The notes under the pieces were generated by a model that worked only from the letters and a program-made list of their open reading frames with translations, did no database searches and had not been told where the DNA came from. A program made the position numbers and the translations under genes. A DNA stretch of 64,000 nt from Antedon mediterranea (lineage: Eukaryota; Echinodermata; Crinoidea; Comatulida; Antedonidae). The DNA lies in the NCBI RefSeq assembly GCF_964355755.1, contig NC_092678.1:24098365-24162364 (forward strand). Direction: 5' to 3'. Below, in pieces: positions 13,781 to 35,888 of the stretch (the first letter of the stretch is position 1; each line of letters opens with the position of its first letter).

Positions 13781-13795
13781 CGTGTTTCTGAATTA

Positions 13796-13960
13796 CCAAT
13801 CGTTGTTATGAAGAAGTTCAGAATGCGCGGGGGCAACAGTAATAATTGAGTAACCAATCAACGAGTCACAGCAACGAGGATGACGACGAATTAGCCAATC
13901 ACAGTTAGAATAAGTTCATCAACAAATTTGCATATTTAGTTTTCGTCCCGCCACCAACTT
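13796..13960 (+). promoter_or_regulatory. Putative promoter of the mini-exon locus: three CCAAT boxes and an octamer
   Basis: CCAAT boxes at 13,796-13,800, 13,854-13,858 and 13,895-13,899 are followed by a perfect octamer ATTTGCAT at 13,926-13,933. This small island is more GC-rich than its surroundings. About 100 bp on, a strong donor (GAGTAG|gtaagt at 14,056/14,057) could end a first exon. CCAAT plus octamer is a familiar arrangement in cell-cycle and germline promoters. Function is inferred; no transcript data are available. Confidence 0.4.
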
Positions 13961-14056
13961 ACGTTGCCATTTCGTAAGTTGACGGCGGCGAAGAAACATC
14001 TCGAAGAAGAAGAAGAAAAAGAAGATGAAGAGACAGGTAGAGTAGGCCGAGAGTAG
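13960..14056 (+). other. Possible first exon of the mini-exon transcript
   Basis: GC-richer purine tract with GAAGAA repeats, ending in an excellent 5' splice site. The only ATG opens a seven-codon frame before a stop, so the exon looks non-coding or 5' UTR. Further candidate exons near 14,412 and 14,756 follow pyrimidine-rich acceptors, but their ends are unclear. The transcription start is a guess. Confidence 0.35.
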
Positions 14057-15266
14057 GTAAGTATTTTATTGGTTTGAAAATACCTTTATTCAAAATATCT
14101 TCGAGTTCACGATTATCATATCGACTTCTAGTATGCCCTAGCTAATCATTTTGTTATTTAGCTTATTTAATGTCACATTTTTATACCGAAAATATTGATT
14201 TTATGAACTACCTTTTCACCGCCTCACCACACACACACACACCGTCGACTCATCATATAAAGTTTTAATTGAGGCTACTTAATTCTGCCTACTAAATTAC
14301 CAATTTTCAATTTCAACACATTGATTATTAGCAACTACAACACTGATTTCATCAATACAGTTCATTTTATCAATTGTTAGCGAATGAAACTGAGCCTATT
14401 TATTTTCATAGGTTTTCTGAAAAGTAAATCACCGCGAAGAACATTATCGTCTGCCTAGCGCGTTCACTGGTTCCTGGTAACTGTGACGTACTGCCAGGTG
14501 TTAGCGCGTACGTTGTCTGATTTTCTACTCGGCCCAATCTACTCGCGGGAACAGAACTTCTTGGTGGTAGAGACTGTTCTCGAACGAAGAATATTTATAC
14601 GTCGAAACTTATTGTTGAATTTAATAGATTAAAGCACATGTTACAATAATTTAATTATTACGAATATATTATTTAACATTATTTTTTTTTTATATTAGTT
14701 TTTATTTTATTTATTTAATTTCTTTTTTCAACTTTTTTCAACTTTTTTTTTTCAGGTTTTAATTCTAGACCGTTACCTGGTATCATCATTCATGCTGTGC
14801 TTCTCCACACTTATGACAGATAAGTAATATTATTTTATACTCTTAAATTTCACAGTAGAAATCCCTATTGGTGTTCATACTTCTTGGTACTTTCGAGATT
14901 TTTCTGTTTCTGCATGCACTTCTGCAACCTTTTACGTTTACACAAATAGATGTTTTGTTATGTGCTTTTCTTGTTTATGAATGTTTTGTTAACTGTAAAT
15001 TAATTAAGAGTATTTTTTCCCTGCACTTTCTTTTATTTTCCAGGTAATTTAGGTTTCTTGGGACATCAGCAAATGCAGACACAGATATGAATGTTACTTG
15101 TATACTAACACATCACTTGTTTATATTGTGTTAAACGTAAAAGGTGTCAGAAAGCATGGAAAATGAATTTGGGGAACCTTGAAACAAATAATTAAAATAG
15201 AGTAATGCTTAAACTAAGACATATAAATAACAAGTTATTATATAATCATGTTTCATATCTTTTCAG

Positions 15267-15443
15267 ATCTAGTTTTGACATTACAAGGAAAGCAATCAAA
15301 GAGCATCAGATGTACAGATGCAATAAGGCTGTTGGAACCAATAAGGTAATAAACATCTTAGTCAATCTAATAGTATAATTTCAATTTTCTTTTTACTTTC
15401 TTTTTTTCAGATAGCAGCTATGGAGACAAATGCAAAGTCACAG
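15267..15443 (+). other. Two founder-like mini-exons (15,267-15,345 and 15,411-15,443)
   Basis: Both sit between good acceptors (tttcag, tttttttcag) and donors (gtaata, gtaagt). The first, 79 nt, contains GAGCATCAGATGTACAGATG followed by GGCTGTTGGAACCAAT, a diverged form of the 96-nt exon of the main array. The second, 33 nt, looks like an internally deleted 48-nt unit. They are the most diverged members and may be the oldest. Confidence 0.5.
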
Positions 15444-15459
15444 GTAAGTAAAAATACAT

Positions 15460-16125
15460 GTATTGCATTTTAAATCATGTTTTTTGGGTAAATGTATTTG
15501 ATATAATGTGTGAGGTGGCATTATATTTTGGTATAGTACATTTTGCCTGCAGGTATGTGTGTAGCTAAGATATATTAAATGTAGCTAAGGGTCTAGAGGT
15601 TTAAGTTTCAATGCATTTTAAATTATGGTATTTTTTTGTAAATTTATTTGATATAATGTGTAAGGTGGCATTATTGGTATTTTAAACTTTGCCTGCAGGT
15701 GTGTGTAGCTAAGATATATTAACAGTAGCTAAGGGTCTAGAGGTTTAAGTTTCAATGCATTTTAAATCATGGTATTTTTTGTATATGTATTTGATATAAT
15801 GTGTAAGGTGGCATTATATTTTGGTATTGTACATTTGCAGGTATGTGTGTAGCTAAGTTATATTAAGTGTAGCTAAGGGTCTAGAGCTTTAAGTTTCAAT
15901 GCATTTTACATTATGGTATTTTTTGTAAATTTATTTGATATAATGTGTAAGGTGGCATTTTTGGTATTGTAAACTTTGTCTGCAGGCAGCTAAGATTTAT
16001 TAAATGTAGCTAAGGGGGTACAGGTTTAAATTTAAATGCACTTTAAATCATGGTATTTTTTGGTAAACTTATTTGATATAATGTGTAAGGTGGTAGGTAA
16101 TGGTAAAATATAGTTTTTATTTAGG
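15460..16125 (+). repeat. Spacer block 1 (141-150 bp repeats)
   Basis: Several diverged units with the family words GTAGCTAAGGGTCTAGAGG, TTTAAGTTTCAATGCATTTT and GATATAATGTGTAAGGTGGC. It lies between the founder-like exons and mini-exon block 1. Nothing coding is visible. Confidence 0.85.
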
Positions 16126-16137
16126 TAATCTTTTCAG

Positions 16138-18118
16138 GTCATACTATATGGATGGATAGATGCAAGGATGTTTTTGAAACCAATTACAGGTAAGAAACAT
16201 CATATTCTATGTAATGGTATAAGTAATTGTCTATTTAGTTACTATTTTCAGATCACACTAAGGATGTACAGGTTCAAGGCATTTGGAACCAATCACAGGT
16301 AAGAAACATCATATCCTATGTCATATTATTAAGAGTATAATTCATTTTCTTTATACTTTTTCTTTTCAGATGGCACCTATGGACATACCAATGCTAGGCT
16401 GTTGAAGAAAATGAAAGGTAAGACTTATCTTTGTCTATCTAATAGTATAATTCATATTCTTTTTTACTTCTCTTTTCAGGTAGGACCATGGGGAGACCGA
16501 TGAAAGGATGTTGGAACTAATCACATATAGGGAACATCAGATGTACTCAGATGCAAGACTGTTGGAATCATTCAGGTAAATAAAAAAATAAACATCTTAG
16601 CCTATCTAATGGTATAATTAGTTTATTTAAACATTCTCCTTTCATTCATTCTTTTTTATTACTTTTTAGGTCTTTCCGATAAAAGTACATTTTTTCAACC
16701 AGTCACCGGTATGCAAATGTACATAGTAAGTTTTCCTTACTATTTAATTTTTCAGATTGCACCTATGAATATACCGATGCAAGGTTGTTTCAAACAATAA
16801 CAGGTAAGAAACATCATATTCTATGTAATGGTATAATTAATTGTCTATTTAGTTACTCTTTTCAGTTCGCACTAAGGATGTACAGGTTCAAGGCATTTGG
16901 AACCAATCACAGGTAAGAAACATCATATCCTATGTTATATTATTAAGAGTATAATTCATTTTCTTTATACTTTTTCTTTTCAGATGGCACCTATGGAAAT
17001 AGCAATGCAAGGCTGTTGGACAAAATCAGAGGTGAGAAACATCTTAGTCTATCTAATAGTATAATTCATTTTCTTTTTTATTTCTCTTTTCATGTATTAC
17101 CATGGGGAGACCGATGCAAGGATGTTGGAACTAATCACATATAGGGAACATCAGATGTACTCAGATGCAAGACTGTTGGAATCATTCAGGTAAATAAAAA
17201 AATAAACATCTTAGCCTATCTAATGGTATAATTCATTTTCTTTTTAACTTCTATTTTCAGGTAGGGCCATGGGGAGATTGATGCAAGGATGTTGGAACTA
17301 ATCACATATAGGGAACATCAGATGTACTCAGATGCAAGACTGTTGGAATCATTCAGGTAAATAAAAAAATAAACATCTTAGCCTATCTAATGGTATAATT
17401 AGTTTTTTTAACATTCTCCTTTCATTCATTCTTTTTTATTATTTTTCAGGTTTTTCCGATAAAAGTGCATTAATTGTTATTTTTAATTTCAACCAGTCAC
17501 AGGTATTCAAATGTAGATAGTAAGTTTTGCTTACTATTTAATTTTTCAGATTGCACCTATGGATATACCGATGCAAGGTTGCTGCAACCAATCACAAGTA
17601 AGAAACATCATATTCTATGTAATGGTATAATTAATTGTCTACTTAGTTACTCTTTTCAGATAGCACTATGGATGTACAGTTTAAATTGTTTTGGAACCAA
17701 TCACAGGAAAGAAACATTATAGCATATAAAATAATTTTCCTTTTGATTTCAACTTTATCCTTTCAGATAGCATTGGAGGTACAGATGCAACAAACTTGGT
17801 ATTATTATACCAGATCTCACCTATAGACATGTCATTTGAGGGCTGTTGGAAACAAGTGAATCACAGGTAAGAATACAAAATATCACATGCACATAACCAT
17901 TTTCTTTTTTATTAATAATAGTATAATACATTTTCTTTATACGTTGTCTTTTCAGATAGCAAATGTACATACCAATGCAAGGCATTTGGAACCAATCACA
18001 GGTAAGAAATATTTTAGTCTATCTAATAGTATAATTCATTTTCTTTTTACTTTCTATTTGCAGATATCAGCTATAGACATACCATTGCAAGGCTGTTGAA
18101 ACCAGTCACAGGTAAGGA
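16138..18118 (+). other. Mini-exon block 1 (16 cassettes)
   Basis: Cassette starts include about 16,138, 16,252, 16,370, 16,480, 16,671, 16,757, 16,867, 16,984, 17,260, 17,447, 17,551, 17,660, 17,767, 17,956 and 18,063. The cassette near 17,095 has lost its acceptor (ttttcatgt instead of ttttcaggt). The exon at 16,252 contains an in-frame TAA relative to its upstream neighbour. This is the most diverged of the five blocks. Confidence 0.7.
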
Positions 18119-18119
18119 T

Positions 18120-19300
18120 GCCACATCCACAGGTATGTGTGCTAAGATATATTAAGTGTAGCTAAGGGTCTAGAGGTTTAAGTTTCAATGCATTTTAAAT
18201 TTTGGTATTTTTTTGTAAATTTATTTGATATAATGTGTAAGGTGGCATTATTGGTATAGTACATTTTGCCTGCAGGTATGTGTGTAGCTAAGATATATTA
18301 AGTGTAGCTAAGGGTCTAGAGCTTTAAGTTTCAATGCATTTTAAATTTTGGTATTTTTTTGTAAATTTATTTGATATAATGTGTAAGGTGGCATTATTGG
18401 TATTGTAAACTTTGCCTGCATGTGTGTGTAGCTAAGATATATTAAGTGTAGCTAAGGGTCTAGAGGTTTAAGTTTCAATGCATTTTAAATCATGGTATTT
18501 TTTGGGTAAATTTATTTGATATAAATAATGTGTAAGGTGGTATTATTGGTATTTTAAACTTTGCCTGCATGTGTGTATAGCTAAGATATATTAAATGTAG
18601 CTAAGGATCTAGAGCTTTAAGTTTCAATGCATTTTAAATTATGGTATTTTTTGTAAATGTATTTGATATAATGTGTAAGGTGGCATTATATTTTGGTTTA
18701 GTAAATTTTGCCTGCATGTGTGTGTAGCTAAGATATATTAAATGTAGCTAAGGGTCTAGAGGTTTAAGTTTCAATGCATTTTAAATCATGATATTTTTTC
18801 GTAAACTTATTTGATATAATGTGTAAGGTGGCATTATTGGTATTTAAAACTTTGCCTGCAGGTGTGGGTAGCTAAGATATATTAATGGTAGCTAAGGGTC
18901 TAGAGGTTTAAGTTTCAATGCATTTTTAATCATGGTATTTTTTGTATATGTAATTGATATAATGTGTAAGGTGACATTTTATTTTGGTATTGTACATTTT
19001 GCCTGCAGGTATGTTTGTAGCTAAGATATATTAAGTGTAGCTAAGGGTCTAGAAGTTTAAGTTTCAATGCATTTTTAAATCATAGTATCTTTTTTATAAA
19101 TTTATTTGATATAATGTGTAAGGTGGCATTATTGGTATTGTAAACTTTGTCTGCAGGCAGCTAAGATTTATTAAGTGTAGCTAAGGGTCTACAGGTTTAA
19201 GTTTCAATGCATTTTAAATAATGGTATTTTTTGGTAAACTTATTTGATATAATGTGTAATGTGGTAGGTAATGGTAAAATATAGTTTTTATTTAGGTACT
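18120..19300 (+). repeat. Spacer block 2 (8 units of about 145 bp)
   Basis: Landmark GTAGCTAAGGGTCTAG recurs at about 18,157, 18,306, 18,449, 18,597, 18,747, 18,889, 19,037 and 19,178, which gives spacings of 141-150 bp. The order of unit variants is kept in blocks 3-5. Confidence 0.9.
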
Positions 19301-19306
19301 CCTTTC

Positions 19307-22300
19307 AGGTCATACTATATGGATGGATAGATGCAAGGCTGTTTTTGGAACCAATTACAGGTAAGAAACATCATATTCTATGTAATGGTATAATTAATTG
19401 TCTATTTAGTTACTCTTTTCAGATCACACTATGTATGTACAGGTTCAAGGCATTTGGAACAAATAACAGGTAAGAAACATCATATCCTATGTTATATTAT
19501 TAAGAGTATAATTCATTTTCTTTATACTTTTTCTTTTCAGATGGCACCTATGGACATACCAATGCAAGGCTGTTGGACAAAATGAAAGGTAAGAAACATC
19601 TTAGTCTATCTAATAGTATAATTCATTTTCTTTTTAACTTCTCTTTTCATGTATTACCATGGGAGACCGATGCAAGGATGTTGGAACTAATCACATATAG
19701 AGAACATCAGATGTACTCAGATGCAAGACTGTTGGAATCATTCAGGTAAATAAAAAAAATAAACATCTTAGCCTATCTAATGGTATAGTTAGTTTATTTA
19801 AACATTCTCCTTTCATTCATTAATTTTTATTACTTTTCAGGTATTTCTAATAAAAGTACATTTGTTATTTTTAATTTCAACCCGTCACCGGTATGCAAAT
19901 GTACATAGTAAGTTTTCCTTACTATTTAATTTTTCAGATTGCACCTATGGATATACCGATGCAAGGTTGTTTCAACCAATCACAGGTAAGAAACATCATT
20001 TTCTACGTAATGGTATAATTAATTGTCTATTTAGCTACTATTTTCAGATCGCACTATGTATGTACAGGTTCAAGGCATTTGGAACCAATCAAAGGTAAGA
20101 GACATCATATCCTATGTTATATTATTAATAGTATAATTCATTTTCTTGATACTTTTTCTTTTCAGATGGCACCTATGGACATACCAATGCAAGGCTGTTG
20201 AAGAAAATGAAAGGTAAGAAACATCTTAGTCTATCTAATAGTATAATTCATTTTCTTTTTAACTTCTCTTTTCAGGTAGGACCATGGGGAGACCGATGCA
20301 AGGATGTTGGAACTAATCACAAATAGGGAACATCAGATGTACTCAGATGCAAGACTGTTGGAATCATTCAGGTAAATAAAAGAAATAAACATCTTAGCCT
20401 ATCTAATGGTATAATTAGTTTATTTAACATTCTCCTTTCATTCAGTCTTTTTTATTACATTTCAGGTCTTTCTGATAAAAGTGCATTTGTTATTTTTAAT
20501 TTCAACCCGTCACCGGTATGCAAATGAACAAAGTAAGTTTTCCTTACTATTTAATTTTTCAGATTGCACCTATGGATATACCGATGCAAGGTTACTGCAA
20601 CCAATCACAGGTAAGAAACATCATATGCTATGTAATGGTATAATTAATTGTCTACTTAGTTACTCTTTTCAGATCGCACTTTGTATGTACAGGTTCAAGG
20701 CATTTGGAACCAATCACAGGTAAGAAACATCATATCCTATGTTATATTATTAAGAGTATAATTCATTTTCTTTATACTTTATCTTTTCAGATGGCCCCTA
20801 TGGACATACCAATGCAAGGCTGTTGGACAAAATGAAAGGTAAGACTTATCTTTGTCTATCTAATAGTATAATTCATATTCTTTTTTACTTCTCTTTTCAG
20901 GTATTACCATGGGGAGACCGATGCAAGGATGTTGGAACTAATCACATATAGGGAACATCAGATGTACTCAGATGCAAGACTGTTGGAATCATTCAGGTAA
21001 ATAAAAAAATAAACATCTTAGCCTATCTAATGGTATAATTAGTTTATTTAAACATTCTCCTTTCATTCATTCTTTTTTATTCCTTTTTAGGTCTTTCCGA
21101 TAAAAGTACATTTTTTCAACCAGTCACCGGTATGCAAATGTACATAGTAAGTTTTCCTTACTATTTAATTTTTCAGATTGCACCTATGAATATACCGATG
21201 CAAGGTTGTTTCAAACAATAACAGGTAAGAAACATCATATTCTATGTAATGGTATAATTAATTGTCTATTTAGTTACTCTTTTCAGATCGCACTAAGGAT
21301 GTACAGGTTCAAGGCATTTGGAACCAATCACAGGTAAGAGACATCATATCCTATGTTATATTATTAATAGTAGAATTCATTTTCTTGATACTTTTTCTTT
21401 TCAGATGGCACCTATTGACATACCAATGCAAGGCTGTTGAAGAAAATGAAAGGTAAGAATTATCTTAGTCTATCTAATAGTATAATTCATTATCTTTTTA
21501 ACTTCTCTTTTCAGGTAGGACCATGGGGAGACCGATGCAAGGATGTTGGAACTAATCACATATAGGGAACATCAGATGTACTCAGATGCAAGACTGTTGG
21601 AATCATTCAGGTAAATAAAAAAAATAAACATCTTAGCCTATCTAATGGTATAGTTAGTTTTTTTAATATTCTCCTTTCATTCATTCTTTTTTTTTTTTTA
21701 CTTTTCAGGTCTTTCCGATAAAAGTACATTTTTAATTTTTAATTTCAACCCGTCACAGGTATGCAAATGAACATAGTAAGTTTTCCTTACTATTTAATTT
21801 TTCAGATTGCACCTATGGATATACCGATGCAAGGTTGTTTCAACCAATCACAGGTAAGAAACATCATTTTCTACGTAATGGTATAATTAATTGTCTATTT
21901 AGCTACTATTTTCAGATCGCACCTATGGGTGTACAGGTTCAAGGCATTTGGAACCAATCACAGGTAAGAAACATTACATCAAACATTGTATAAAATAATT
22001 TTCCTTTTGATTTCAACTTTATCCTTTCAGATAGCATTGGAGGTACAGATGCAAGAAACTTGGTATTATTATACCAGATCTCACCTATAGACATGTCAAT
22101 TGAGGGCTGTTGGAAACAAGTGAATCACAGGTAAGAATACAACATATCACATGCACATAACCATTTTCTTTTTTATTAATAATAGTATAATACATTTTCT
22201 TTATACGTTCTCTTTTCAGATAGCAAATGTACATACCAATGCAAGGCATTTGGAACCAATCACAGGTAAGAAATATCTTAGTCTATCTAATAGAATAATT

Positions 22301-22376
22301 CATTTTGTTTTCACTTTCTATTTGCAGATATCAGCTATAGACATACCATTGCAAGGCTGTTGAAACCAGTCACAGG
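19307..22376 (+). other. Mini-exon block 2 (25 cassettes, the longest)
   Basis: Same cassette types in the same order as the other blocks, with an extra internal run of about 1 kb (roughly 20,900-21,900) resembling a second partial copy. The exon at about 21,917 is an undamaged 48-nt version of the cassette that is 47 nt in most other places. This shows that the common form arose by a 1-nt deletion. Confidence 0.75.
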
Positions 22377-22384
22377 TAAGGATG

Positions 22385-23565
22385 CCACATCCACAGGTAT
22401 GTGTAGCTAAGATATATTAAGTGTAGCTAAGGGTCTACAGGTTTAAGTTTCAATGCATTTTAAATTTTGGTATTTTTTTGTAAATTTATTTGATATAATG
22501 TTTAAGGTGGCATTATTGGTATAGTACATTTTGCCTGCAGGTATGTGTGTAGCTAAGATATATTAAGTGTAGCTAAGGGTCTAGAGCTTTAAGTTTCAAT
22601 GCATTTTAAATTTTGGTATTTTTTTGTAAATTTATTTGATATAATGTGTAAGGTGGCATTATTGGTATTGTAAAGTTTGCCTGCATGTGTGTGTAGCTAA
22701 GATATATTAAGTGTAGCTAAGGGTCTAGAGGTTTAAGTTTCAATGCATTTTAAATCATGGTATTTTTGGGGTAAATTTATTTGATATAAATAATGTGTAA
22801 GGTGGTATTATTGGTATTTTAAACTTTGCCTGCATGTGTGTATAGCTAAGATATATTAAATGTAGCTAAGGATCTAGAGCTTTAAGTTTTAATGCATTTT
22901 AAATTATGGTATTTTTTGTAAATGTATTTGATATAATGTGTAAGGTGGCATTATATTTTGGTTTAGTAAATTTTGCCTGCATGTGTGTGTAGCTAAGATA
23001 TATTAAATGTAGCTAAGGGTCTAGAGGTTTAAGTTTCAATGCATTTTAAATCATGATATTTTTTCTTAAACTTATTTGATATAATGTGTAAGGTGGCATT
23101 ATTGGTATTTAAAACTTTGCCTGCAGGTGTGGGTAGCTAAGATATATTAATGGTAGCTAAGGGTCTAGAGGTTTAAGTTTCAATGCATTTTTAATCATGG
23201 TATTTTTTGTATATGTAATTGATATAATGTGTAAGGTGACATTTTATTTTGGTATTGTACATTTTACCTGCAGGTATGTTTGTAGCTAAGATATATTAAG
23301 TGTAGCTAAGGGTCTAGAAGTTTAAGTTTCAATGCATTTTTAAATCATAGTATCTTTTTTATAAATTTATTTGATATAATGTGTAAGGTGGCATTATTGG
23401 TATTGTAAACTTTGTCTGCAGGCAGCTAAGATTTATTAAGTGTAGCTAAGGGTCTACAGGTTTAAGTTTCAATGCATTTTAAATAATGGTATTTTTTGGT
23501 AAACTTATTTGATATAATGTGTAATGTGGTAGGTAATGGTAAAATATAGTTTTTATTTAGGTACT
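22385..23565 (+). repeat. Spacer block 3
   Basis: Nearly identical to spacer block 2 unit by unit, including the variant GTAGCTAAGGATCTAGAGC in the fourth unit. This shows that the spacer moved together with the flanking mini-exons as one higher-order unit. Confidence 0.9.
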
Positions 23566-23572
23566 CCTTTCA

Positions 23573-25579
23573 GGTCATACTATATGGATGGATAGATGCA
23601 AGGCTGTTTTTGGAACCAATTACAGGTAAGAAACATCATATTCTATGTAATGGTATAAGTAATTGTCTATTTAGTTACTCTTTTCAGATCACACTATGTA
23701 TGTACAGGTTCAAGGCATTTGGAACAAATAACAGGTAAGAGACATCATATCCTATGTTTTATTATTAATAGTATAATTCATTTTCTTGATACTTTTTCTT
23801 TTCAGATGGCACCTATGGACATACCAATGCAAGGCTGTTGAAGAAAATGAAAGGTAAGAAACATCTTAGTCTATCTAATAGTATAATTCATTTTCTTTTT
23901 AACTTCTCTTTTCAGGTAGGACCATGGGGAGACCGATGCAAGGATGTTGGAACTAATCACATATAGGGAACATCAGATGTACTCAGATGCAAGACTGTTG
24001 GAATCATTCAGGTAAATAAAAGAAATAAACATCTTAGCCTATCTAATGGTATAATTAGTTTATTTAACATTCTCCTTTCATTCAGTCTTTTTTATTACTT
24101 TTCAGGTATTTCTAATAAAAGTGCATTTGTTATTTTTAATTTCAACCCGTCACCGGTATGCAAATGAACAAAGTAAGTTTTCCTTACTATTTAATTTTTC
24201 AGATTGCACCTATGGATATACCGATGCAAGGTTGCTGCAACCAATCACAGGTAAGAAACATCATATTCTATGTAATGGTATAATTACTTGTCTATTTAGT
24301 TACTCTTTTCAGATCACACTATATATGTACATGTTCAAGGCATTTGGAACCAATCACAGGTAAGAAACATTACATCAAACATTGTATAAAATAATTTTCC
24401 TTTTAATTTCAACTTTCTCCTTTCAGAGCATTGGAGGTACAGATGCAACAAACTTGGTATTATTATACCAGATCTCACCTATAGACATGTCAATTGAGGG
24501 CTGTTGGAAACAAGTGAATCACAGGTAAGAATACAACATATCACATGCACATAACCATTTTCTTTTTTATTAATAATAGTATAATTCATTTTCTTTATAC
24601 TTTATCTTTTCAGATGGCACCTATGGACATATCAATGCAAGGCTGTTGAAGAAAATGAAAGGTAAGAATTATCTCAGTCTATCTAATAGTATAATTCATT
24701 TTCTTTTTTACCTTCATTTTCAGGTAGGACCATAGGGAGATTGATGCAAGGATGTTGGAACTAATCACATATAGGGAACATCAGATGTACTCAGATGCAA
24801 GACTGTTGGAATCATTCAGGTAAATAAAAAAATAAACATCTTAGCCTATCTAATTGTATAGTTAGTTTTTTTAACATTCTCTTTTCATTCATTCTTTTTT
24901 TTCACTTTTCAGGTCTTTCCGATAAAAGTACATTTTTTATTTTTTATTTCAACCAGTCACAGGTATGCAAATGTGGATAGTAAGTTTTGCTTACTATTTA
25001 ATTTTTCAGATTGCACCTATGGATATACCGATGCAAGGTTACTGCAACCAATCACAGGTAAGAAACATCATATGCTATGTAATGGTATAATTAATTGTCT
25101 ACTTAGTTACTCTTTTCAGATCGCACTATGGGTGTACAGGTTCAAGGCATTTGGAACCAATCACAGGTAAGAAACATTACATCAAACATTGTATAAAATA
25201 ATTTTCCTTTTGATTTCAACTTTATCCTTTCAGATAGCATTGGAGGTACAGATGCAAGAAACTTGGTATTATTATACCAGATCTCACCTATAGACATGTC
25301 AATTGAGGGCTGTTGGAAACAAGTGAATCACAGGTAAGAATACAACATATCACATGCACATAACCATTTTCTTTTTTATTAATAATAGTATAATACATTT
25401 TCTTTATACGTTCTCTTTTCAGATAGCAAATGTACATACCAATGCAAGGCATTTGGAACCAATCACAGGTAAGAAATATCTTAGTCTATCTAATGGAATA
25501 ATTCATTTTGTTTTCACTTTCTATTTGCAGATATCAGCTATAGACATACCATTGCAAGGCTGTTGAAACCAGTCACAGG
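23573..25579 (+). other. Mini-exon block 3 (16 cassettes)
   Basis: Cassettes start at about 23,573, 23,690, 23,805, 23,915, 24,105, 24,205, 24,312, 24,427, 24,614, 24,722, 24,914, 25,008, 25,119, 25,233, 25,422 and 25,530. Splicing the first three exons keeps one frame open: lengths 52 and 47 compensate each other. The fourth, 96-nt exon then gives TAA in that frame. Confidence 0.75.
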
Positions 25580-25589
25580 TAAGGATGCC

Positions 25590-26910
25590 ACATCCACAGG
25601 TATGTGTAGCTAAGATATATTAAGTGTAGCTAAGGGTCTACAGGTTTAAGTTTCAATGCATTTTAAATTTTGGTATTTTTTTGTAAATTTATTTGATATA
25701 ATGTTTAAGGTGGCATTATTGGTATAGTACATTTTGCCTGCAGGTATGTGTGTAGCTAAGATATATTAAGTGTAGCTAAGGGTCTAGAGCTTTAAGTTTC
25801 AATGCATTTTAAATTTTGGTATTTTTTTGTAAATTTATTTGATATAATGTGTAAGGTGGCATTATTGGTATTGTAAAGTTTGCCTGCATGTGTGTGTAGC
25901 TAAGATATATTAAGTGTAGCTAAGGGTCTAGAGGTTTAAGTTTCAATGCATTTTAAATCATGGTATTTTTTGGGTAAATTTATTTGATATAAATAATGTG
26001 TAAGGTGGTATTATTGGTATTTTAAACTTTGAATGCATGTGTGTATAGCTAAGATATATTAAATGTAGCTAAGGATCTAGAGCTTTAAGTTTCAATGCAT
26101 TTTAAATTATGGTATTTTTTTGTAAATGTATTTGATATAATGTGTAAGGTGGCATTATATTTTGGTTTAGTAAATTTTGCCTGCATGTGTGTGTAGCTAA
26201 GATATATTAAATGTAGCTAAGGGTCTAGAGGTTTAAGTTTCAATGCATTTTAAATCATGATATTTTTTCGTAAACTTATTTGATATAATGTGTAAGGTGG
26301 CATTATTGGTATTTAAAACTTTGCCTGCAGGTGTGGGTAGCTAAGATATATTAATGGTAGCTAAGGGTCTAGAGGTTTAAGTTTCAATGCATTTTTAATC
26401 ATGGTATTTTTTGTATATGTAATTGATATAATGTGTAAGGTGACATTTTATTTTGGTATTGTACATTTTACCTGCAGGTATGTTTGTAGCTAAGATATAT
26501 TAAGTGTAGCTAAGGGTCTAGAAGTTTAAGTTTCAATGCATTTTTAAATCATAGTATCTTTTTTATAAATTTATTTGATATAATGTGTAAGGTGGCATTA
26601 TTGGTATTGTAAACTTTGTCTGCAAGCAGCTAAGATTTATTAAGTGTAGCTAAGGGTCTACAGGTTTAAGTTTCAATGCATTTTTAAATCATAGTATCTT
26701 TTTTGTAAATTTATTTGATATAATGTGTAAGGTGGCATTATTGGTATTGTAAACTTTGTCTGCAGGCAGCTAAGATTTATTAAGTGTAGCTAAGGGTCTA
26801 CAGGTTTAAGTTTCAATGCATTTTAAATAATGGTATTTTTTGGTAAACTTATTTGATATAATGTGTAATGTGGTAGGTAATGGTAAAATATAGTTTTTAT
26901 TTAGGTACTC
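25590..26910 (+). repeat. Spacer block 4 (one extra unit)
   Basis: As blocks 3 and 5, but with one additional unit near 26,620-26,780 that duplicates its neighbour. The unit beginning near 26,628 reads TCTGCAAGCAGC where its neighbours read TCTGCAGGCAGC. Confidence 0.85.
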
Positions 26911-26918
26911 CTTTCAGG

Positions 26919-29541
26919 TCATACTATATGGATGGATAGATGCAAGGCTGTTTTTGGAACCAATTACAGGTAAGAAACATCATATTCTATGTAATGGTAT
27001 AATTAGTTGTCTATTTAGTTACTCTTTTCAGATCACACTATGTATGTACAGGTTCAAGGCATTTGGAACAAATAACAGGTAAGAAACATCATATCCTATG
27101 TTATATTATTAAGAGTATAATTCATTTTCTTTATATTTTTTCTTTTCAGATGGCATCTATGGACATACCAATGCAAGGCTGTTGGACAAAATCAAAGGTA
27201 AGAAACATCTTAGTCTATCTATAGTATAATTCATTTTCTTTTTTACCTTAAATTTCAGGTAGGACCATGGGGAGACCGATGCAAGGATGTTGGAACTAAT
27301 CACATATAGGGAACATCAGTTGTACTCAGATGCAAGACTGTTGGAATCATTCAGGTAAATAAAAAAATAAACATCTTAGCCTATCTAATGGTATAGTTAG
27401 TTTATTTAAACATTCTCTTTTCATTCATTCTTTTTTATTATTTTCAGGTCTTTCCGATGTAAGTACATTTTTTTTTTATTTCAACCAGTCACAGGTATGC
27501 AAATGTACATAGTAAGTTTTCCTTACTAATTAATTTTTCAGATTGCACCTATGGATATACCGATGCAAGGTTGTTTCAACCAATCACAGGTAAGAAACAT
27601 CATTTTCTACGTAATGGTATAATTAATTGTCTATTTAGCTACTATTTTCAGATCGCACTATGTATGTACAGGTTCAAGGCATTTGGAACCAATCAAAGGT
27701 AAGAGACATCATATCCTATGTTATATTATTAATAGTATAATTCATTTTCTTGATACTTTTTCTTTTCAGATGGCACCTATGGACATACCAATGCAAGGCT
27801 GTTGAAGAAAATGAAAGGTAAGAAACATCTTAGTCTATCTAATAGTATAATTCATTTTCTTTTTAACTTCTCTTTTCAGGTAGGACCATGGGGAGACCGA
27901 TGCAAGGATGTTGGAACTAATCACAAATAGGGAACATCAGATGTACTCAGATGCAAGACTGTTGGAATCATTCAGGTAAATAAAAGAAATAAACATCTTA
28001 GCCTATCTAATGGTATAATTAGTTTATTTAACATTCTCCTTTCATTCAGTCTTTTTTATTACATTTCAGGTCTTTCTGATAAAAGTGCATTTGTTATTTT
28101 TAATTTCAACCCGTCACCGGTATGCAAATGAACAAAGTAAGTTTTCCTTACTATTTAATTTTTCAGATTGCACCTATGGATATACCGATGCAAGGTTGCT
28201 GCAACCAATCACAGGTAAGAAACATCATATTCTATGTAATGGTATAATTACTTGTCTATTTAGTTACTCTTTTCAGATCACACTATATATGTACATGTTC
28301 AAGGCATTTGGAACCAATCACAGGTAAGAAACATTACATCAAACATTGTATAAAATAATTTTCCTTTTAATTTCAACTTTCTCCTTTCAGAGCATTGGAG
28401 GTACAGATGCAATAAACTTGGTATTATTATACCAGATCTCACCTATAGACATGTCAATTGAGGGCTGTTGGAAACAAGTGAATCACAGGTAAGAATACAA
28501 AATATCACATGCACATAACCATTTTCTTTTTTATTAATAATAGTATAATTCATTTTCTTTATACTTTATCTTTTCAGATGGCACCTATGGACATATCAAT
28601 GCAAGGCTGTTGAAGAAAATGAAAGGTAAGAATTATCTCAGTCTATCTAATAGTATAATTCATTTTCTTTTTTACCTTCATTTTCAGGTAGGACCATGGG
28701 GAGATTGATGCAAGGATGTTGGAACTAATCACATATAGGGAACATCAGATGTACTCAGATGCAAGACTGTTGGAATCATTCAGGTAAATAAAAAAATAAA
28801 CATCTTAGCCTATCTAATTGTATAGTTAGTTTTTTTAACATTCTCTTTTCATTCATTCTTTTTTTTCACTTTTCAGGTCTTTCCGATAAAAGTACATTTT
28901 TTATTTTTTATTTCAACCAGTCACAGGTATGCAAATGTGGATAGTAAGTTTTGCTTACTATTTAATTTTTCAGATTGCACCTATGGATATACCGATGCAA
29001 GGTTACTGCAACCAATCACAGGTAAGAAACATCATATGCTATGTAATGGTATAATTAATTGTCTACTTAGTTACTCTTTTCAGATCGCACTATGGGTGTA
29101 CAGGTTCAAGGCATTTGGAACCAATCACAGGTAAGAAACATTACATCAAACATTGTATAAAATAATTTTCCTTTTGATTTCAACTTTATCCTTTCAGATA
29201 GCATTGGAGGTACAGATGCAAGAAACTTGGTATTATTATACCAGATCTCACCTATAGACATGTCAATTGAGGGCTGTTGGAAACAAGTGAATCACAGGTA
29301 AGAATACAACATATCACATGCACATAACCATTTTCTTTTTTATTAATAATAGTATAATACATTTTCTTTATACGTTCTCTTTTCAGATAGCAAATGTACA
29401 TACCAATGCAAGCCATTTGGAACCAATCACAGGTAAGAAATATCTTAGTCTATCTAATGGAATAATTCATTTTGTTTTCACTTTCTATTTGCAGATATCA
29501 GCTATAGACATACCATTGCAAGGCTGTTGAAACCAGTCACA
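26919..29541 (+). other. Mini-exon block 4 (21 cassettes)
   Basis: Almost the same cassette order as block 5. Its right half (about 27,990-29,541) is nearly identical to 24,030-25,579 in block 3, so block boundaries are being homogenised by unequal exchange. Confidence 0.75.
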
Positions 29542-29549
29542 GGTAAGGA

Positions 29550-30735
29550 TGCCACATCCACAGGTATGTGTAGCTAAGATATATTAAGTGTAGCTAAGGG
29601 TCTACAGGTTTAAGTTTCAATGCATTTTAAATTTTGGTATTTTTTTGTAAATTTATTTGATATAATGTTTAAGGTGGCATTATTGGTATAGTACATTTTG
29701 CCTGCAGGTATGTGTGTAGCTAAGATATATTAAGTGTAGCTAAGGGTCTAGAGCTTTAAGTTTCAATGCATTTTAAATTTTGGTATTTTTTTGTAAATTT
29801 ATTTGATATAATGTGTAAGGTGGCATTATTGGTATTGTAAAGTTTGCCTGCATGTGTGTGTAGCTAAGATATATTAAGTGTAGCTAAGGGTCTAGAGGTT
29901 TAAGTTTCAATGCATTTTAAATCATGGTATTTTTTGGGTAAATTTATTTGATATAAATAATGTGTAAGGTGGTATTATTGGTATTAGTACATTTTGCCTG
30001 CAGGTATGTGTGTAGCTAAGATATATTAAATGTAGCTAAGGATCTAGAGCTTTAAGTTTCAATGCATTTTAAATTATGGTATTTTTTGTAAATGTATTTG
30101 ATATAATGTGTAAGGTGGCATTATATTTTGGTTTAGTAAATTTTGCCTGCATGTGTGTGTAGCTAAGATATATTAAATGTAGCTAAGGGTCTAGAGGTTT
30201 AAGTTTCAATGCATTTTAAATCATGATATTTTTTCGTAAACTTATTTGATATAATGTGTAAGGTGGCATTATTGGTATTTAAAACTTTGCCTGCAGGTGT
30301 GGGTAGCTAAGATATATTAATGGTAGCTAAGGGTCTAGAGGTTTAAGTTTCAATGCATTTTTAATCATGGTATTTTTTGTATATGTAATTGATATAATGT
30401 GTAAGGTGACATTTTATTTTGGTATTGTACATTTTACCTGCAGGTATGTTTGTAGCTAAGATATATTAAGTGTAGCTAAGGGTCTAGAAGTTTAAGTTTC
30501 AATGCATTTTTAAATCATAGTATCTTTTTTATAAATTTATTTGATATAATGTGTAAGGTGGCATTATTGGTATTGTAAACTTTGTCTGCAGGCAGCTAAG
30601 ATTTATTAAATGTAGCTAAGGGTCTACAGGTTTAAGTTTCAATGCATTTTAAATAATGGTATTTTTTGGTAAACTTATTTGATATAATGTGTAATGTGGT
30701 AGGTAATGGTAAAATATAGTTTTTATTTAGGTACT
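29550..30735 (+). repeat. Spacer block 5
   Basis: Same unit order as spacer blocks 2 and 3. One junction near 29,985-30,010 (ATTAGTACATTTTGCCTGC) has switched to the sequence of another unit, which is a sign of conversion within the block. Confidence 0.9.
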
Positions 30736-30743
30736 CCTTTCAG

Positions 30744-33376
30744 GTCATACTATATGGATGGATAGATGCAAGGCTGTTTTTGGAACCAATTACAGGTAAG
30801 AAACATCATATTCTATGTAATGGTATAATTAGTTGTCTATTTAGTTACTCTTTTCAGATCACACTATGTATGTACAGGTTCAAGGCATTTGGAACAAATA
30901 ACAGGTAAGAAACATCATATCCTATGTTATATTATTAAGAGTATAATTCATTTTCTTTATATTTTTTCTTTTCAGATGGCACCTATGGACATACCAATGC
31001 AAGGCTGTTGGACAAAATGAAAGGTAAGAAACATCTTAGTCTATCTAATAGTATAATTCATTTTCTTTTTAACTTCTCTTTTCATGTATTACCATGGGAG
31101 ACCGATGCAAGGATGTTGGAACTAATCACATATAGAGAACATCAGATGTACTCAGATGCAAGACTGTTGGAATCATTCAGGTAAATAAAAAAAATAAACA
31201 TCTTAGCCTATCTAATGGTATAGTTAGTTTATTTAAACCTTCTCCTTTCATTCATTAATTTTTATTACTTTTCAGGTATTTCTAATAAAAGTACATTTGT
31301 TATTTTTAATTTCAACCCGTCACCGGTATGCAAATGTACATAGTAAGTTTTCCTTACTATTTAATTTTTCAGATTGCACCTATGGATATACCGATGCAAG
31401 GTTGTTTCAACCAATCACAGGTAAGAAACATCATTTTCTACGTAATGGTATAATTAATTGTCTATTTAGCTACTATTTTCAGATCGCACTATGTATGTAC
31501 AGGTTCAGGGCATTTGGAACCAATCAAAGGTAAGAGACATCATATCCTATGTTATATTATTAATAGTATAATTCATTTTCTTGATACTTTTTCTTTTCAG
31601 ATGGCACCTATGGACATACCAATGCAAGGCTGTTGAAGAAAATGAAAGGTAAGAAACATCTTAGTCTATCTAATAGTATAATTCATTTTCTTTTTAACTT
31701 CTCTTTTCAGGTAGGACCATGGGGAGACCGATGCAAGGATGTTGGAACTAATCACATATAGGGAACATCAGATGTAGTCAGATGCAAGACTGTTGGAATC
31801 ATTCAGGTAAATAAAAGAAATAAACATCTTAGCCTATCTAATGGTATGATTAGTTTATTTAACATTCTCCTTTCATTCATTCTTTTTTATTACATTTCAG
31901 GTCTTTCTGATAAAAGTGCATTTGTTATTTTTAATTTCAACCCGTCACCGGTATGCAAATGAACAAAGTAAGTTTTCCTTACTATTTAATTTTTCAGATT
32001 GCACCTATGGATATACCGATGCAAGGTTGCTGCAACCAATCACAGGTAAGAAACATCCTATTCTATGTAATGGTATAATTACTTGTCCATTTAGTTACTC
32101 TTTTCAGATCACACTATATATGTACATGTTCAAGGCATTTGGAACCAATCACAGGTAAGAAACATTACATCAAACATTGTATAAAATAATTTTCCTTTTA
32201 ATTTCAACTTTCTCCTTTCAGAGCATTGGAGGTACAGATGCAACAAACTTGGTATTATTATACCAGATCTCACCTATAGACATGTCAATTGAGGGCTGTT
32301 GGAAACAAGTGAATCACAGGTAAGAATACAACATATCACATGCAAATAACCATTTTCTTTTTTTATTAATAATAGTATAATTCATTTTCTTTATACTTTA
32401 TCTTTTCAGATGGCACCTATGGACATACCAATGCAAGGCTGTTGAAGAAAATGAAAGGTAAGAATTATCTTAGTCTATCTTATAGTATAATTCATTTTCT
32501 TTTTTACCTTCATTTTCAGGTAGGACCATGGGGAGATTGATGCAAGGATGTTGGAACTAATCACATATAGGGAACATCAGATGTACTCAGATGCAAGACT
32601 GTTGGAATCATTCAGGTAAATAAAAAAATAAACATCTTAGCCTATCTAATTGTATAGTTAGTTTTTTTAACATTCTCTTTTCATTCATTCTTTTTTTTTA
32701 CTTTTCAGGTCTTTCCGATAAAAGTACATTTTTTATTTTTTATTTCAACCAGTCACAGGTATGCAAATGTGGATAGTAAGTTTTGCTTACTATTTAATTT
32801 TTCAGATTGCACCTATGGATATACCGATGCAAGGTTACTGCAACCAATCACAGGTAAGAAACATCATATGCTATGTAATGGTATAATTAATTGTCTACTT
32901 AGTTACTCTTTTCAGATCGCACTATGGGTGTACAGGTTCAAGGCATTTGGAACCAATCACAGGTAAGAAACATTACATCAAACATTGTATAAAATAATTT
33001 TCCTTTTGATTTCAACTTTATCCTTTCAGATAGCATTGGAGGTACAGATGCAAGAAACTTGGTATTATTATACCAGATCTCACCTATAGACATGTCAATT
33101 GAGGGCTGTTGGAAACAAGTGAATCACAGGTAAGAATACAAAATATCACATGCACATAACCATTTTCTTTTTTATTAATAATAGTATAATACATTTTCTT
33201 TATACGTTCTCTTTTCAGATAGCAAATGTACATACCAATGCAAGGCATTTGGAACCAATCACAGGTAAGAAATATTTTAGTCTATCTAATAGTATAATTC
33301 ATTTTCTTTTTACTTTCTATTTGCAGATATCAGCTATGGACATACCATTGCAAGGCTGTTGAAACCAGTCACAGGT
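30744..33376 (+). other. Mini-exon block 5 (21 cassettes)
   Basis: The last full block. Cassettes run from about 30,744 to about 33,326, with the same types and order as block 4. Single-base differences (for example CAGGGCATTTGG near 31,506) are few. Confidence 0.75.
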
Positions 33377-33384
33377 AAGGATGC

Positions 33385-34290
33385 CACATCCACAGGTATG
33401 TGTAGCTAAGATATATTAAGTGTAGCTAAGGGTCTAGAGCTTTAAGTTTCAATGCATTTTAAATTTTGGTATTTTTTTGTAAATTTATTTGATATAATGT
33501 GTAAGGTGGCATTATTGGTATAGTACATTTTGCCTGCAGGTATGTGTGTAGCTAAGATATATTAAGTGTAGCTAAGGGTCTAGAGCTTTAAGTTTCAATG
33601 CATTTTAAATTTTGGTATTTTTTTGTAAATTTATTTGATATAATGTGTAAGGTGGCATTATTGGTATTGTAAACTTTGCCTGCATGTGTGTGTAGCTAAG
33701 ATATATTAAGTGTAGCTAAGGGTCTAGAGGTTTAAGTTTCAGTGCATTTTAAATTATGGTATTTTTTTTAATGTATTTTATATAATGTGTAAGGTGGCAT
33801 TATATCTTGGTATTGTACATTTTTCTTAAGGGTATGTGTGTAGCTAAGATATATTAAGTGTAGCTAAGGGTCTAGATGTTTAAGTTTCAATGCATTATTT
33901 CAAAACAGGTTTTTTGTAAATGTATTTGATATAATGTGTAAAGTGGCATTATATCTGGTTTAGTACATTTTGCCTGCAGGTGTGCGTAGCTAAGATATAT
34001 TAAGTGTAGCTAAGGGTCTAGAGGTTTAAGTTTCAATGCATTTATATTTATGGTATTTTTTTGTAAATTTTTTTGATATAAATAATGTGTAAGGTGGCAT
34101 TATTGGTATTGTAAACTTTGCCTGCAGGTGTGTGTAGCTAAGATATATTAAGTGTAGCTAAGGGTCTAGAGGTTTAAGTTTCAGTGCATTTTAAATCATG
34201 GTAGTTTTTGTAAATGTATTTGATATAATGTGTAAGGTGGCATTATATCTTGGTATTGTACATTTATGGTATGTGTGTAGTTAAGTATTG
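33385..34290 (+). repeat. Spacer block 6 (terminal, more diverged)
   Basis: Six to seven units of the spacer family, more diverged than in the internal blocks. This is typical of array edges, which escape homogenisation. It leads into the 36-nt-intron array. Confidence 0.85.
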
Positions 34291-34327: not shown

Positions 34328-35142
34328 CAGGTTTTGTCACTCAAGGTACTTGTAGGGTGAAATATCCAGACCAGATACATGTGCGGTACTTTGATGCTAT
34401 GGTGGAATAGCAAGGAAAACAGAACCAACACATTAGAAGATAGAGGACAATCAAAAGTAAGTTTACTACTAACCTCAATTACACAATTTCAGAGTTGATA
34501 AATTATATTCGGAGCAGCTCGTCTATCAGAGATACATGTGCGGCACTTGGATACTATGGACATACAGGATGGAATAGCAAGAAAAACCGGACCAACACAC
34601 TGGAAGATGGAAAGACAATCAAAAGTAAGTTTACTACTAACCTCAATTCCACAATTTCAGAGTTGATAGGTTATATCCGGAGCAGCTTGTCTATCAGAGA
34701 TAAATGTGCGGATACTATGGACATACAGGATGGAATAGCAAGAAAAACCGGACCAACACACTGGAAGATGGAAAGACAATCAAAAGTAAGTTTACTACTA
34801 ACCTCAATTCCACAATTTCAGAGTTGATAGGTTATATCCGGAGCAGCTTGTCTATCAGAGATAAATGTGCGGATACTATGGACATACAGGATGGAATAGC
34901 TAGAAAAACCGGACCAACACATTGGAAGATGGAAAGACAATCAAAAGTAAGTTTACTACTAACCTCAATTCCACAATTTCAAAGTTGATAGGTTATATCC
35001 GGAGCAGCTTGTCTATCAGAGATACATGTGCGGATACTATGGACATTCAGGATGGAATAGCAAGAAAAACAGGACCAACACATTGGTAGATGGAGGACAA
35101 TCAAAAGTAAGTTTACTACTAACCTCAATTGCACAATTTCAG
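34328..35142 (+). repeat. Terminal tandem array: 124-132 nt exons with 36-nt introns
   Basis: Five near-identical 36-nt stretches occur at 34457-34492, 34625-34660, 34786-34821, 34947-34982 and 35107-35142. Each begins GTAAGTTTACTACTAACC and ends CACAATTTCAG (fourth copy: CAA, acceptor damaged). Each holds a perfect TACTAAC branch-site consensus. The stretches between them are 132, 125, 125 and 124 nt. The 132-nt form reads ELINYIRSSSSIRDTCAALG and then YYGHTGWNSKKNRTNTLEDG. The shorter forms lack 7 nt after GTGCGG. The 36-nt stretch is itself stop-free and a multiple of three in this frame, so the array could equally be a retained 56-codon coding repeat. Being on the same strand and directly downstream, it may be the 3' end of the mini-exon transcript. 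Confidence 0.65.
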
Positions 35143-35888
35143 AATTGACTGCACGAGTTGGTGATTACAAAACTTATTACACAAAGGAATATGACAGCTA
35201 AACTGTAAGTATATCTGTAAGGTAAGTAAGATAAGTATAATATTTAGATTAGTGGATATATTCTCTTCAGGCCCTGTGACACATAATGTTGCAGTGTACT
35301 CCAGATGCCTAGCTGTTTATGGCATGTTTTAGATTTATTCCTATAGTCCCAATTCCATTCTCCATGTAGGCCTACTCCAATTAGAATAGGATATATTATT
35401 GTTTTTCATATGTATATTTCTTGATAAAATGTATTGTATATTTTGCTATGTTTTTTGCACCGTTGAGGAGCATCATTACACGTGCTACCTGCCCTAGGTG
35501 TCCTCGCTGTGATCATCAACCTTGACGTGGTAGCGAGGCTTGTGTGTTTCCAACTTGGAAGCCGGACTAATGATGATCTTAACAAATGTTTAATGTAATA
35601 CATTTATGTGATAAAAAATAATATTATTAATTTTGTTTTATGAACATTCAAACTAAAATGTTGTGTTCAATTGATGCCAATTTGCAATCAGAGAACACAA
35701 AGTTATAAAAATAATAAACTTTCTTCATGCACACTCACACCTATAAATGATATGTGCAAATTATTATAAACATTTAACCAATCACAAACCAGAACTTTAA
35801 AACGCTAGTCTGATTGGTCATAATATTTGACTCCCTAGATTGATAAAAATTTCCAGATTCTTTTTTGGCCCCGAGACGTAGCTGAAAC
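35143..35888. other. Intergenic, array to TOMM6, with CCAAT boxes
   Basis: AT-rich, without a convincing exon. A CCAAT box at about 35,778-35,782 and an inverted one (ATTGG) near 35,813-35,817 lie about 75-110 bp before the TOMM6 ATG and are likely promoter elements. Confidence 0.5.

What the first reader, a model, noticed from the sequence alone, without database searches (positions are those of the whole stretch)
15267..34290. About 100 tandem splice-competent mini-exons in one locus
Directly seen: cassettes of pyrimidine tract, cag, 46-52 or 96 nt exon, gtaag, and introns mostly about 60-90 nt, repeated through about 18 kb on one strand. A CCAAT/octamer region and a strong first donor lie upstream. 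I know of no described gene family with this layout. It could be a hyper-repetitive, combinatorially spliced transcript, a decayed repeat-protein gene, or a satellite that captured an exon with its splice sites.
Basis: partly seen in the sequence, partly recalled or inferred. Interest (0 to 1): 0.9.

Follow-up and report, generated by a model that had tools for sequence, protein, structure and literature searches.

The report
Non-coding gene of 100 tiny exons
In a feather star genome, a gene with a promoter-like start carries about a hundred closely similar tiny exons that look spliceable but not translatable, and four sister loci carry the same design with 9 to 172 such exons, so it appears to be an unusual family of long non-coding RNA genes.

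Summary
In detail: 100 cassettes (exons 39-100 nt, introns mostly 47-98 nt) on one strand at 15267-33374; 3 acceptors and 1 donor are lost. A splice-cassette scan finds 89 on this strand, 0 on the other, 1.8 in shuffles. The last kilobase of the stated range is satellite. The host is a crinoid (MED20 98% identical to Antedon mediterranea).
It is not one freak locus. Four paralogous arrays on another contig (110, 172, 65 and 9 exon hits) share its promoter and 5' exons. In the three large ones most exons are 41 nt, not a multiple of three. Their splice-core sites change 2-4 times less than introns, and stop codons are not depleted. All five array bodies are CpG-depleted and their promoters are not, as expected of germline-transcribed genes, though some other stretches are as low.
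Best reading: a family of transcribed, spliced, untranslated genes whose repetitive RNA is assembled by splicing, grown by unequal crossing-over of an exon-intron unit. Transcription and splicing are inferred; no RNA data were available. What the RNA does is unknown; a multivalent scaffold is my guess. A dead coding origin is possible.

The parts
13564..14056 (+). promoter and first exon: three CCAAT boxes (13796, 13854, 13895), octamer ATTTGCAT (13926), strong donor AG|GTAAGTATTTTATT (GT at 14057); start of transcription not known
   Evidence: 75-78% identical to four C11 loci over 461-476 bp; the three CCAAT boxes and the donor are kept in 5 of 5, the octamer in 3 of 5; CpG o/e 1.06-1.17 at 13-15 kb
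14756..14823 (+). second exon (inferred; donor GATAA|GTA)
   Evidence: acceptor and donor present in 5 of 5 loci; donor choice inferred
15044..15136 (+). third exon (inferred; 3' limit uncertain)
   Evidence: region 84% identical to R1 over 143 bp, 85% to R4 over 113, 76% to R3 over 230, 74% to R2 over 233
15267..15345 (+). first array exon (79 nt; about 35 nt in R1-R3)
   Evidence: acceptor TCTTTTCAG in 5 of 5 loci
15411..15443 (+). short diverged array exon, 33 nt (not among the 100)
15464..16093 (+). 144-bp satellite, first array
   Evidence: 0 CpG
16138..18111 (+). mini-exon block 1 (I C A D E B C A D D E B C F G H)
18136..19264 (+). 144-bp satellite array
19309..22375 (+). mini-exon block 2
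22400..23529 (+). 144-bp satellite array
23574..25578 (+). mini-exon block 3
25597..26873 (+). 144-bp satellite array
26918..29542 (+). mini-exon block 4
29561..30699 (+). 144-bp satellite array
30744..33374 (+). mini-exon block 5
33393..34265 (+). 144-bp satellite, last array
34403..35148 (+). second tandem array, 161-bp unit x4.6, with five 36-nt intron-like stretches GTAAGT..TACTAAC..TTTCAG (4 of 5 keep the final AG); whether these are spliced is unknown
   Evidence: similar stretches in R4, R1, R2 and a short one in R3
35500..35586 (+). structured 3' element near the presumed gene end; a dispersed motif, not unique to the family
   Evidence: 95% identical to R1 over 83 bp, 91% to R2 and R3, not found in the fetched part of R4; 38 places in the genome

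Best explanation
The locus is one member of a family of at least five long non-coding RNA genes in a feather star. SHOWN BY SEQUENCE: each gene has the same promoter block and 5' exons, then a tandem array of an exon-intron unit (41-48-nt exon plus about 62-nt intron), with a related satellite; splice-core sites are constrained in the large arrays, reading frame is not, and array bodies but not promoters are CpG-depleted. INFERRED: RNA polymerase II transcribes the loci in the germ line; the short introns are recognised by intron definition, so that up to about 170 mini-exons are joined into an RNA of up to about 6.7 kb made of one repeated 41-48-nt motif; the array grows and is homogenised by unequal crossing-over, and splice-defective units are selected against. 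MOST LIKELY FUNCTION (weakly supported): the repeated exon is a binding module and copy number sets the RNA's valency, so splicing turns a satellite-like DNA array into a compact multivalent RNA scaffold.
For: Cassettes and chance controls. Four paralogous arrays, exon hits R1 110, R2 172, R3 65, R4 9; promoter, exons 1-3 conserved, satellite in R1-R3 and by eye in R4. Exon length 41 nt in 93/97, 140/164 and 56/64 exons with both sites found in R1-R3. Non-consensus bases in unique units of R1-R3: splice core 44/2681 cells (1.6%), AG+GT 21/976 (2.2%), exon interior 668/9244 (7.2%), introns 1597/16068 (9.9%); AG/GT pairs away from splice sites 250/2881 (8.7%). Tree-based changes per site: introns 3.38, exon interior 2.51, AG 1.50, GT 0.83, other core 0.81; full core vs intron p 1.5e-8. 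In the window, minimum events per site 4/72 in AG, GT and +3..+6 vs 123/684 in introns, p 0.005. Stops in unique 41-mers not depleted (25, 28, 35 vs null 28.1, 23.4, 24.9). CpG o/e 0.05-0.43 per kb over 15-34 kb vs 1.06-1.17 at 13-15 kb, and the same step in R1-R4.
Against: No RNA data: transcription and splicing are not shown. R1 has a relaxed acceptor AG (5.8% non-consensus; 5 and 2 changes at its two sites). AG+GT against exon interior in the tree test is p 0.053, polypyrimidine tracts change as fast as introns (3.64), and inside the window the AG/GT control is not decisive (2 events in 36 splice positions vs 28 in 244 others). Low CpG is not peculiar to the arrays: 7-8 kb of the window has 0.15 and two kilobases downstream of R1 have 0.04-0.06; a CpG-poor founder could also explain it. 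Three spliced six-exon stretches show no excess structure (z -0.07, 1.02, 0.79). Function of the RNA is a guess.
Confidence: 0.72

Rival explanations
1. Decayed repeat-protein gene: the unit was once a phase-0 48-nt coding exon (16-residue repeat); coding was lost and what remains is a multi-copy pseudogene that may still be transcribed.
For: Between exon classes, changes fall preferentially on third positions of one frame (p 0.0015, 0.0175, 0.018, 0.017 in four choices of 4-8 unit rows, units E, F1 and D2 left out; not corrected for 3 frames; a hand alignment gave 0.0024). The 41-nt consensus exon has no stop in any frame. Exon paths keep more exons open than base-shuffled exons do (66 of 97 vs 33.6, max 47).
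Against: Exon lengths differ between classes by amounts not divisible by 3; 41-nt exons dominate three loci; recent changes 19/17/19 by codon position, 42 non-synonymous, 6 synonymous, 4 stop gains, 2 stop losses (8 of 9 classes, E left out); no protein matched the joined exon peptides although the database holds Antedon mediterranea proteins. Decay would not spare splice cores.
Confidence: 0.13
2. Neutral satellite that captured an exon with its splice sites; splice motifs persist because amplification is recent.
For: Nested higher-order repeats, 91-98% identical; real 144-bp satellite interleaved; three promoter copies without any array hit in the 20-40 kb fetched round them.
Against: Five loci keep promoter and 5' exons; splice cores change 2-4 times less than introns in R1-R3.
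Confidence: 0.12
3. Protein-coding gene with combinatorial mini-exon splicing.
For: Longest open stretch in fully spliced R1 is 420 codons; fewer stops than in base-shuffled exons in the window (167 vs 397) and longer in-frame paths than base-shuffled exons, partly because units are copies of one stop-poor sequence.
Against: Best in-frame path keeps 66 of 97 exons, random exon order 64 (max 73); longest consecutive run 9 vs 9.8; longest open stretch in the spliced window array 118 codons, shuffled mean 95, max 162; stops not depleted in 41-mers.
Confidence: 0.05
4. piRNA-precursor locus: spliced single-strand germline transcript processed into piRNAs. Compatible with the best explanation rather than exclusive of it.
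For: Germline-type CpG depletion; repeat-rich; CCAAT-rich promoter.
Against: No small-RNA data; transposon content of the arrays was not examined; such precursors are not known (recalled) to need about 100 conserved junctions.
Confidence: 0.1

Closest known systems
FIRRE long non-coding RNA with RRD local repeats (PMC4820808; abstract and passages seen)
   Same: A repeat local to the gene overlaps many of its exons (7 of 13 in human, 11 of 23 in mouse); non-coding; the repeat acts as an RNA module
   Different: Here the repeated exons are 41-48 nt with introns of about 62 nt, up to 172 per locus, in five dispersed paralogues; nuclear retention untested
Fibrillar collagen genes (recalled)
   Same: Dozens of small exons of one unit length and fused doubles of twice that length
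   Different: Collagen exons are multiples of 9 nt and coding; these change length without regard to frame
snoRNA host genes such as GAS5 or SNHG14 (recalled; a GAS5 paper was seen only in a search listing)
   Same: Many short untranslated exons, tandem exon-intron units in SNHG14
   Different: Rfam finds no snoRNA in the window or in the parts of R1-R4 given to it, and 0 of 99 gaps between exons hold C/D boxes; H/ACA boxes not scored
Higher-order satellite DNA (recalled)
   Same: Nested repeat hierarchy
   Different: Unit is an exon plus intron with constrained splice sites, downstream of a conserved promoter

Membership tests
long non-coding RNA gene | own promoter | tested here: inconclusive
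   450-bp block 75-78% conserved at the 5 array loci with CpG o/e up to 1.17-1.30; promoter activity not testable here
long non-coding RNA gene | transcribed and spliced | not testable with these tools
   no RNA data; only sequence constraint on splice sites
long non-coding RNA gene | no conserved reading frame | tested here: met
   a trace of older third-position bias
FIRRE-like local-repeat lncRNA | local repeat overlaps many exons | tested here: met
   (predicted exons)
FIRRE-like local-repeat lncRNA | homology or synteny with FIRRE, nuclear retention | not tested
   no FIRRE sequence compared
snoRNA host gene | snoRNAs in introns | tested here: not met
collagen-type coding mini-exon gene | exon lengths multiple of 3 and open frame | tested here: not met
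plain satellite DNA | no sub-motif under constraint | tested here: not met
   splice core vs intron p 1.5e-8 in R1-R3
piRNA cluster | piRNAs map to it | not testable with these tools
   no small-RNA data

The most novel reading that the evidence does not exclude
A gene class in which splicing is the product-making step of a satellite-like array: selection acts on the splice sites of tens to hundreds of near-identical untranslated mini-exons so that a short RNA motif is concatenated into a multivalent RNA, with valency set by unequal crossing-over, in several paralogous loci of one genome.
Probability: 0.35. Interest if true: 0.88.

Novelty: new variant of a known kind. Interest (0 to 1): 0.76.

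Why it matters
If expressed, one locus would give RNAs with about 65-170 junctions built from 41-48-nt exons beside introns near the lower size limit for animal splicing (general knowledge). That makes it a natural test of intron definition, of exon-junction-complex loading and of how repeat RNAs arise. The 9-exon paralogue beside 65-172-exon ones gives a dose series of valency in one genome. It also shows constraint on splice sites uncoupled from coding.

Tried and rejected
Coding by exon skipping: rejected. Structured spliced RNA: no excess folding in three six-exon stretches. snoRNA host: rejected. Recursive zero-length splice sites in the satellite (TGCAG|GTATGT): noticed, but the motif is changed in several of the 30 copies aligned and was not pursued. 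Homologous proteins of joined exon peptides: 49 candidates, none at E<=10. Exact-pattern scans of viral and prokaryote contigs: 0 matches each. The 3' element first looked like the family's conserved RNA; the genome search found it in 38 places, so I dropped that claim. The within-window AG/GT control was not decisive. The pooled cell-count p-values ignore shared ancestry; the tree-based test is the one to trust. Papers: 10 searches over an open-access library listed no paper whose title or opening lines describe such a gene; most subscription papers are not held.

Limits: the genome searches with exons 2-3, with the satellite and with an R2 unit did not complete, so five array loci and three array-less promoter copies are a lower bound; one search listed only part of its 392 matches. 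The probe contained donor letters. One search repeats the count with an exon-interior probe: 344 hits in R1-R3, 294 with AG and GT exactly in place; of the 50 others 37 are printed, about 24 of which keep both sites at a shifted place or in a longer exon and about 13 (8 of them in R1) have lost one.
Full report
OBSERVATION. Acceptor-exon-donor cassettes fill 15267-33374 on the + strand. Probes made of exon interiors only find 100 cassettes on + and none on -. 96 have YAG in place and 99 have GT; three D-class exons share one CAG>CAT change, one C-class exon has lost its donor, and one apparent acceptor miss is a hit inside the longer first exon. A plain cassette scan gives 89 in the locus against 1.8 in shuffles and 0 on the other strand.

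ANATOMY. The exons fall into nine classes that derive from one unit of about 48 nt plus about 62 nt of intron (class E is the most diverged). Order is nested: a five-cassette module C-A-D-E-B, blocks running I...F-G-H, and a higher-order repeat of block plus 144-bp satellite array, with copies 91-98% identical. The 96- and 100-nt exons look like fused pairs with remnants of a lost intron (my reading). Introns are 47-98 nt in 94 of 99 gaps; five gaps of 0.8-1.3 kb hold the satellite. Downstream lies a second tandem array of 161-bp units with 36-nt intron-like stretches carrying TACTAAC. The commonest donor is CAG|GTAAGA (46 of 100) and the commonest acceptor CTTTTCAG (47 of 100).

HOST. Neighbours include MED20, a carnitine acyltransferase and a HYR-domain protein by Pfam; Aurora-borealis-like and TOMM6-like genes are my reading of ORFs. 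Joined MED20 exons are 98% identical to Antedon mediterranea, so this is a crinoid, Antedon or very close. The assembly has 354 Mb in 18 contigs.

A FAMILY. The genome holds further arrays on contig C11, on its minus strand: R1 (110 exon hits near 1.14-1.15 Mb), R2 (172, 1.74-1.76 Mb), R3 (65, 3.09-3.10 Mb), R4 (9, 18.39 Mb). They share with the window the promoter and first exon (75-78% over 461-476 bp), the following 1 kb (68-71%) and the exon-3 region (74-85%); R1-R3 share the satellite (76-79%) and all four share pieces of the 3' region. Three CCAAT boxes and the exon-1 donor are kept in 5 of 5 loci, the octamer in 3 of 5. The promoter probe also finds a copy with exon 1 and part of intron 1 but no array (R5), and two partial relics (R6, R7). 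R4, with nine mini-exons and a few satellite-like units, looks like an unamplified member.

SPLICING WITHOUT CODING. In R1-R3 most exons are exactly 41 nt (93/97, 140/164, 56/64 with both sites found), which cannot keep one frame from exon to exon; class lengths in the window also differ by non-multiples of three. Stop codons among unique 41-mers are as frequent as random mutation predicts, in R3 more frequent. In the window, recent changes in 8 of 9 classes are even over codon positions (19, 17, 19), with 42 non-synonymous, 6 synonymous, 4 stop gains and 2 stop losses. Exon skipping keeps 66 of 97 exons in frame, no more than random exon order (64, max 73), though more than base-shuffled exons (33.6, max 47), as expected of copies of a stop-poor unit. 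Splice cores, in contrast, are slow: on trees of unique units of R1-R3, changes per site are 3.38 in introns, 3.64 in pyrimidine tracts, 2.51 in exon interiors, 1.50 at AG, 0.83 at GT and 0.81 at other core sites (full core vs intron p 1.5e-8; AG+GT vs intron p 0.0009; AG+GT vs exon interior p 0.053; exon interior vs intron p 0.0007). AG/GT pairs elsewhere in the unit vary four times more than those at splice sites (8.7% vs 2.2%). In the window alone the signal is weaker: 4/72 vs 123/684 events (p 0.005), but not decisive against other AG/GT pairs. R1 is the most relaxed (acceptor AG 5.8% non-consensus). Comparison of exon classes in the window shows an excess of third-position changes in one frame (p 0.0015-0.018), so an ancient coding origin stays possible.

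TRANSCRIPTION MARK. CpG o/e is 1.06-1.17 at 13-15 kb, 0.05-0.43 per kb from 15 to 34 kb, 0.39 and 0.53 in the next two kilobases and 0.98 at 36-37 kb. The depletion starts near the array, not at exon 1. A like step from the promoter kilobase (1.17-1.30) to the array body (0-0.42) appears in R1-R4. In invertebrates promoters are usually unmethylated and methylated CpGs concentrate in transcribed gene bodies (PMC8857917, passages seen); methylated CpG decays (general knowledge), so this fits germline transcription. It is not specific: 7-8 kb of the window and two kilobases downstream of R1 are as low, and a CpG-poor founder could give part of the pattern.

MECHANISM AND RANKING. I take these as non-coding genes whose short introns are spliced by intron definition, joining mini-exons into a repeat RNA; summed exons are 5.9 kb in the window, 4.0 in R1, 6.7 in R2 and 2.6 in R3. 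Unequal crossing-over changes copy number. Transcription and splicing are inferred from sequence alone. A multivalent binding scaffold is the function I would bet on, at perhaps one in three; a by-product or piRNA-precursor role is not excluded. The nearest known relative in kind is FIRRE, whose local repeat overlaps 7 of 13 human and 11 of 23 mouse exons (PMC4820808, passages seen). I therefore call it a new variant of a known kind, with the bolder reading kept as the novel case.

CHECK. On re-reading the calls I mended exon 2's ends, the start of the CpG depletion, the count of like-scoring dispersed copies (22), the account and the list of unanswered searches, and added controls that tell against me.

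Noticed in passing
window 35500-35586: A ~85-nt motif near the 3' end (GTCCTCGCTGTGATCATCAACC..TGATGATC, two hairpins predicted) matches 38 genome places (itself and R1-R3 included), 22 of them with the same score at 87%; the two of these aligned (L047, L048) share flanks and an (AATA)n tail. The core stays nearly invariant amid diverged flanks in other copies; Rfam gave nothing at gathering level. Possibly a structured tail of a mobile element also present at gene 3' ends.
   Followed up: partly
window 35756-35851: A CCAAT plus inverted CCAAT block just upstream of a TOMM6-like start is 87.5% identical to a stretch downstream of R2 and also aligns at R1.
   Followed up: partly
window 18136-19264 and the other satellite arrays: Many 144-bp satellite units carry TGCAG|GTATGT, an acceptor joined to a donor (like a recursive splice site), plus a well-kept GTAAGG.
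   Followed up: partly
window 57318-59923: A 62-bp tandem repeat, 42 copies, 97% matches, leaves long open frames on the minus strand; not examined.
   Followed up: no
window 60633-63654: A non-LTR retrotransposon with reverse transcriptase and endonuclease domains on the minus strand, in two overlapping frames.
   Followed up: partly
L047:2-877: Near a dispersed copy of the 3' motif lies an open frame that reads like an OTU-type protease (my reading, no domain search).
   Followed up: no
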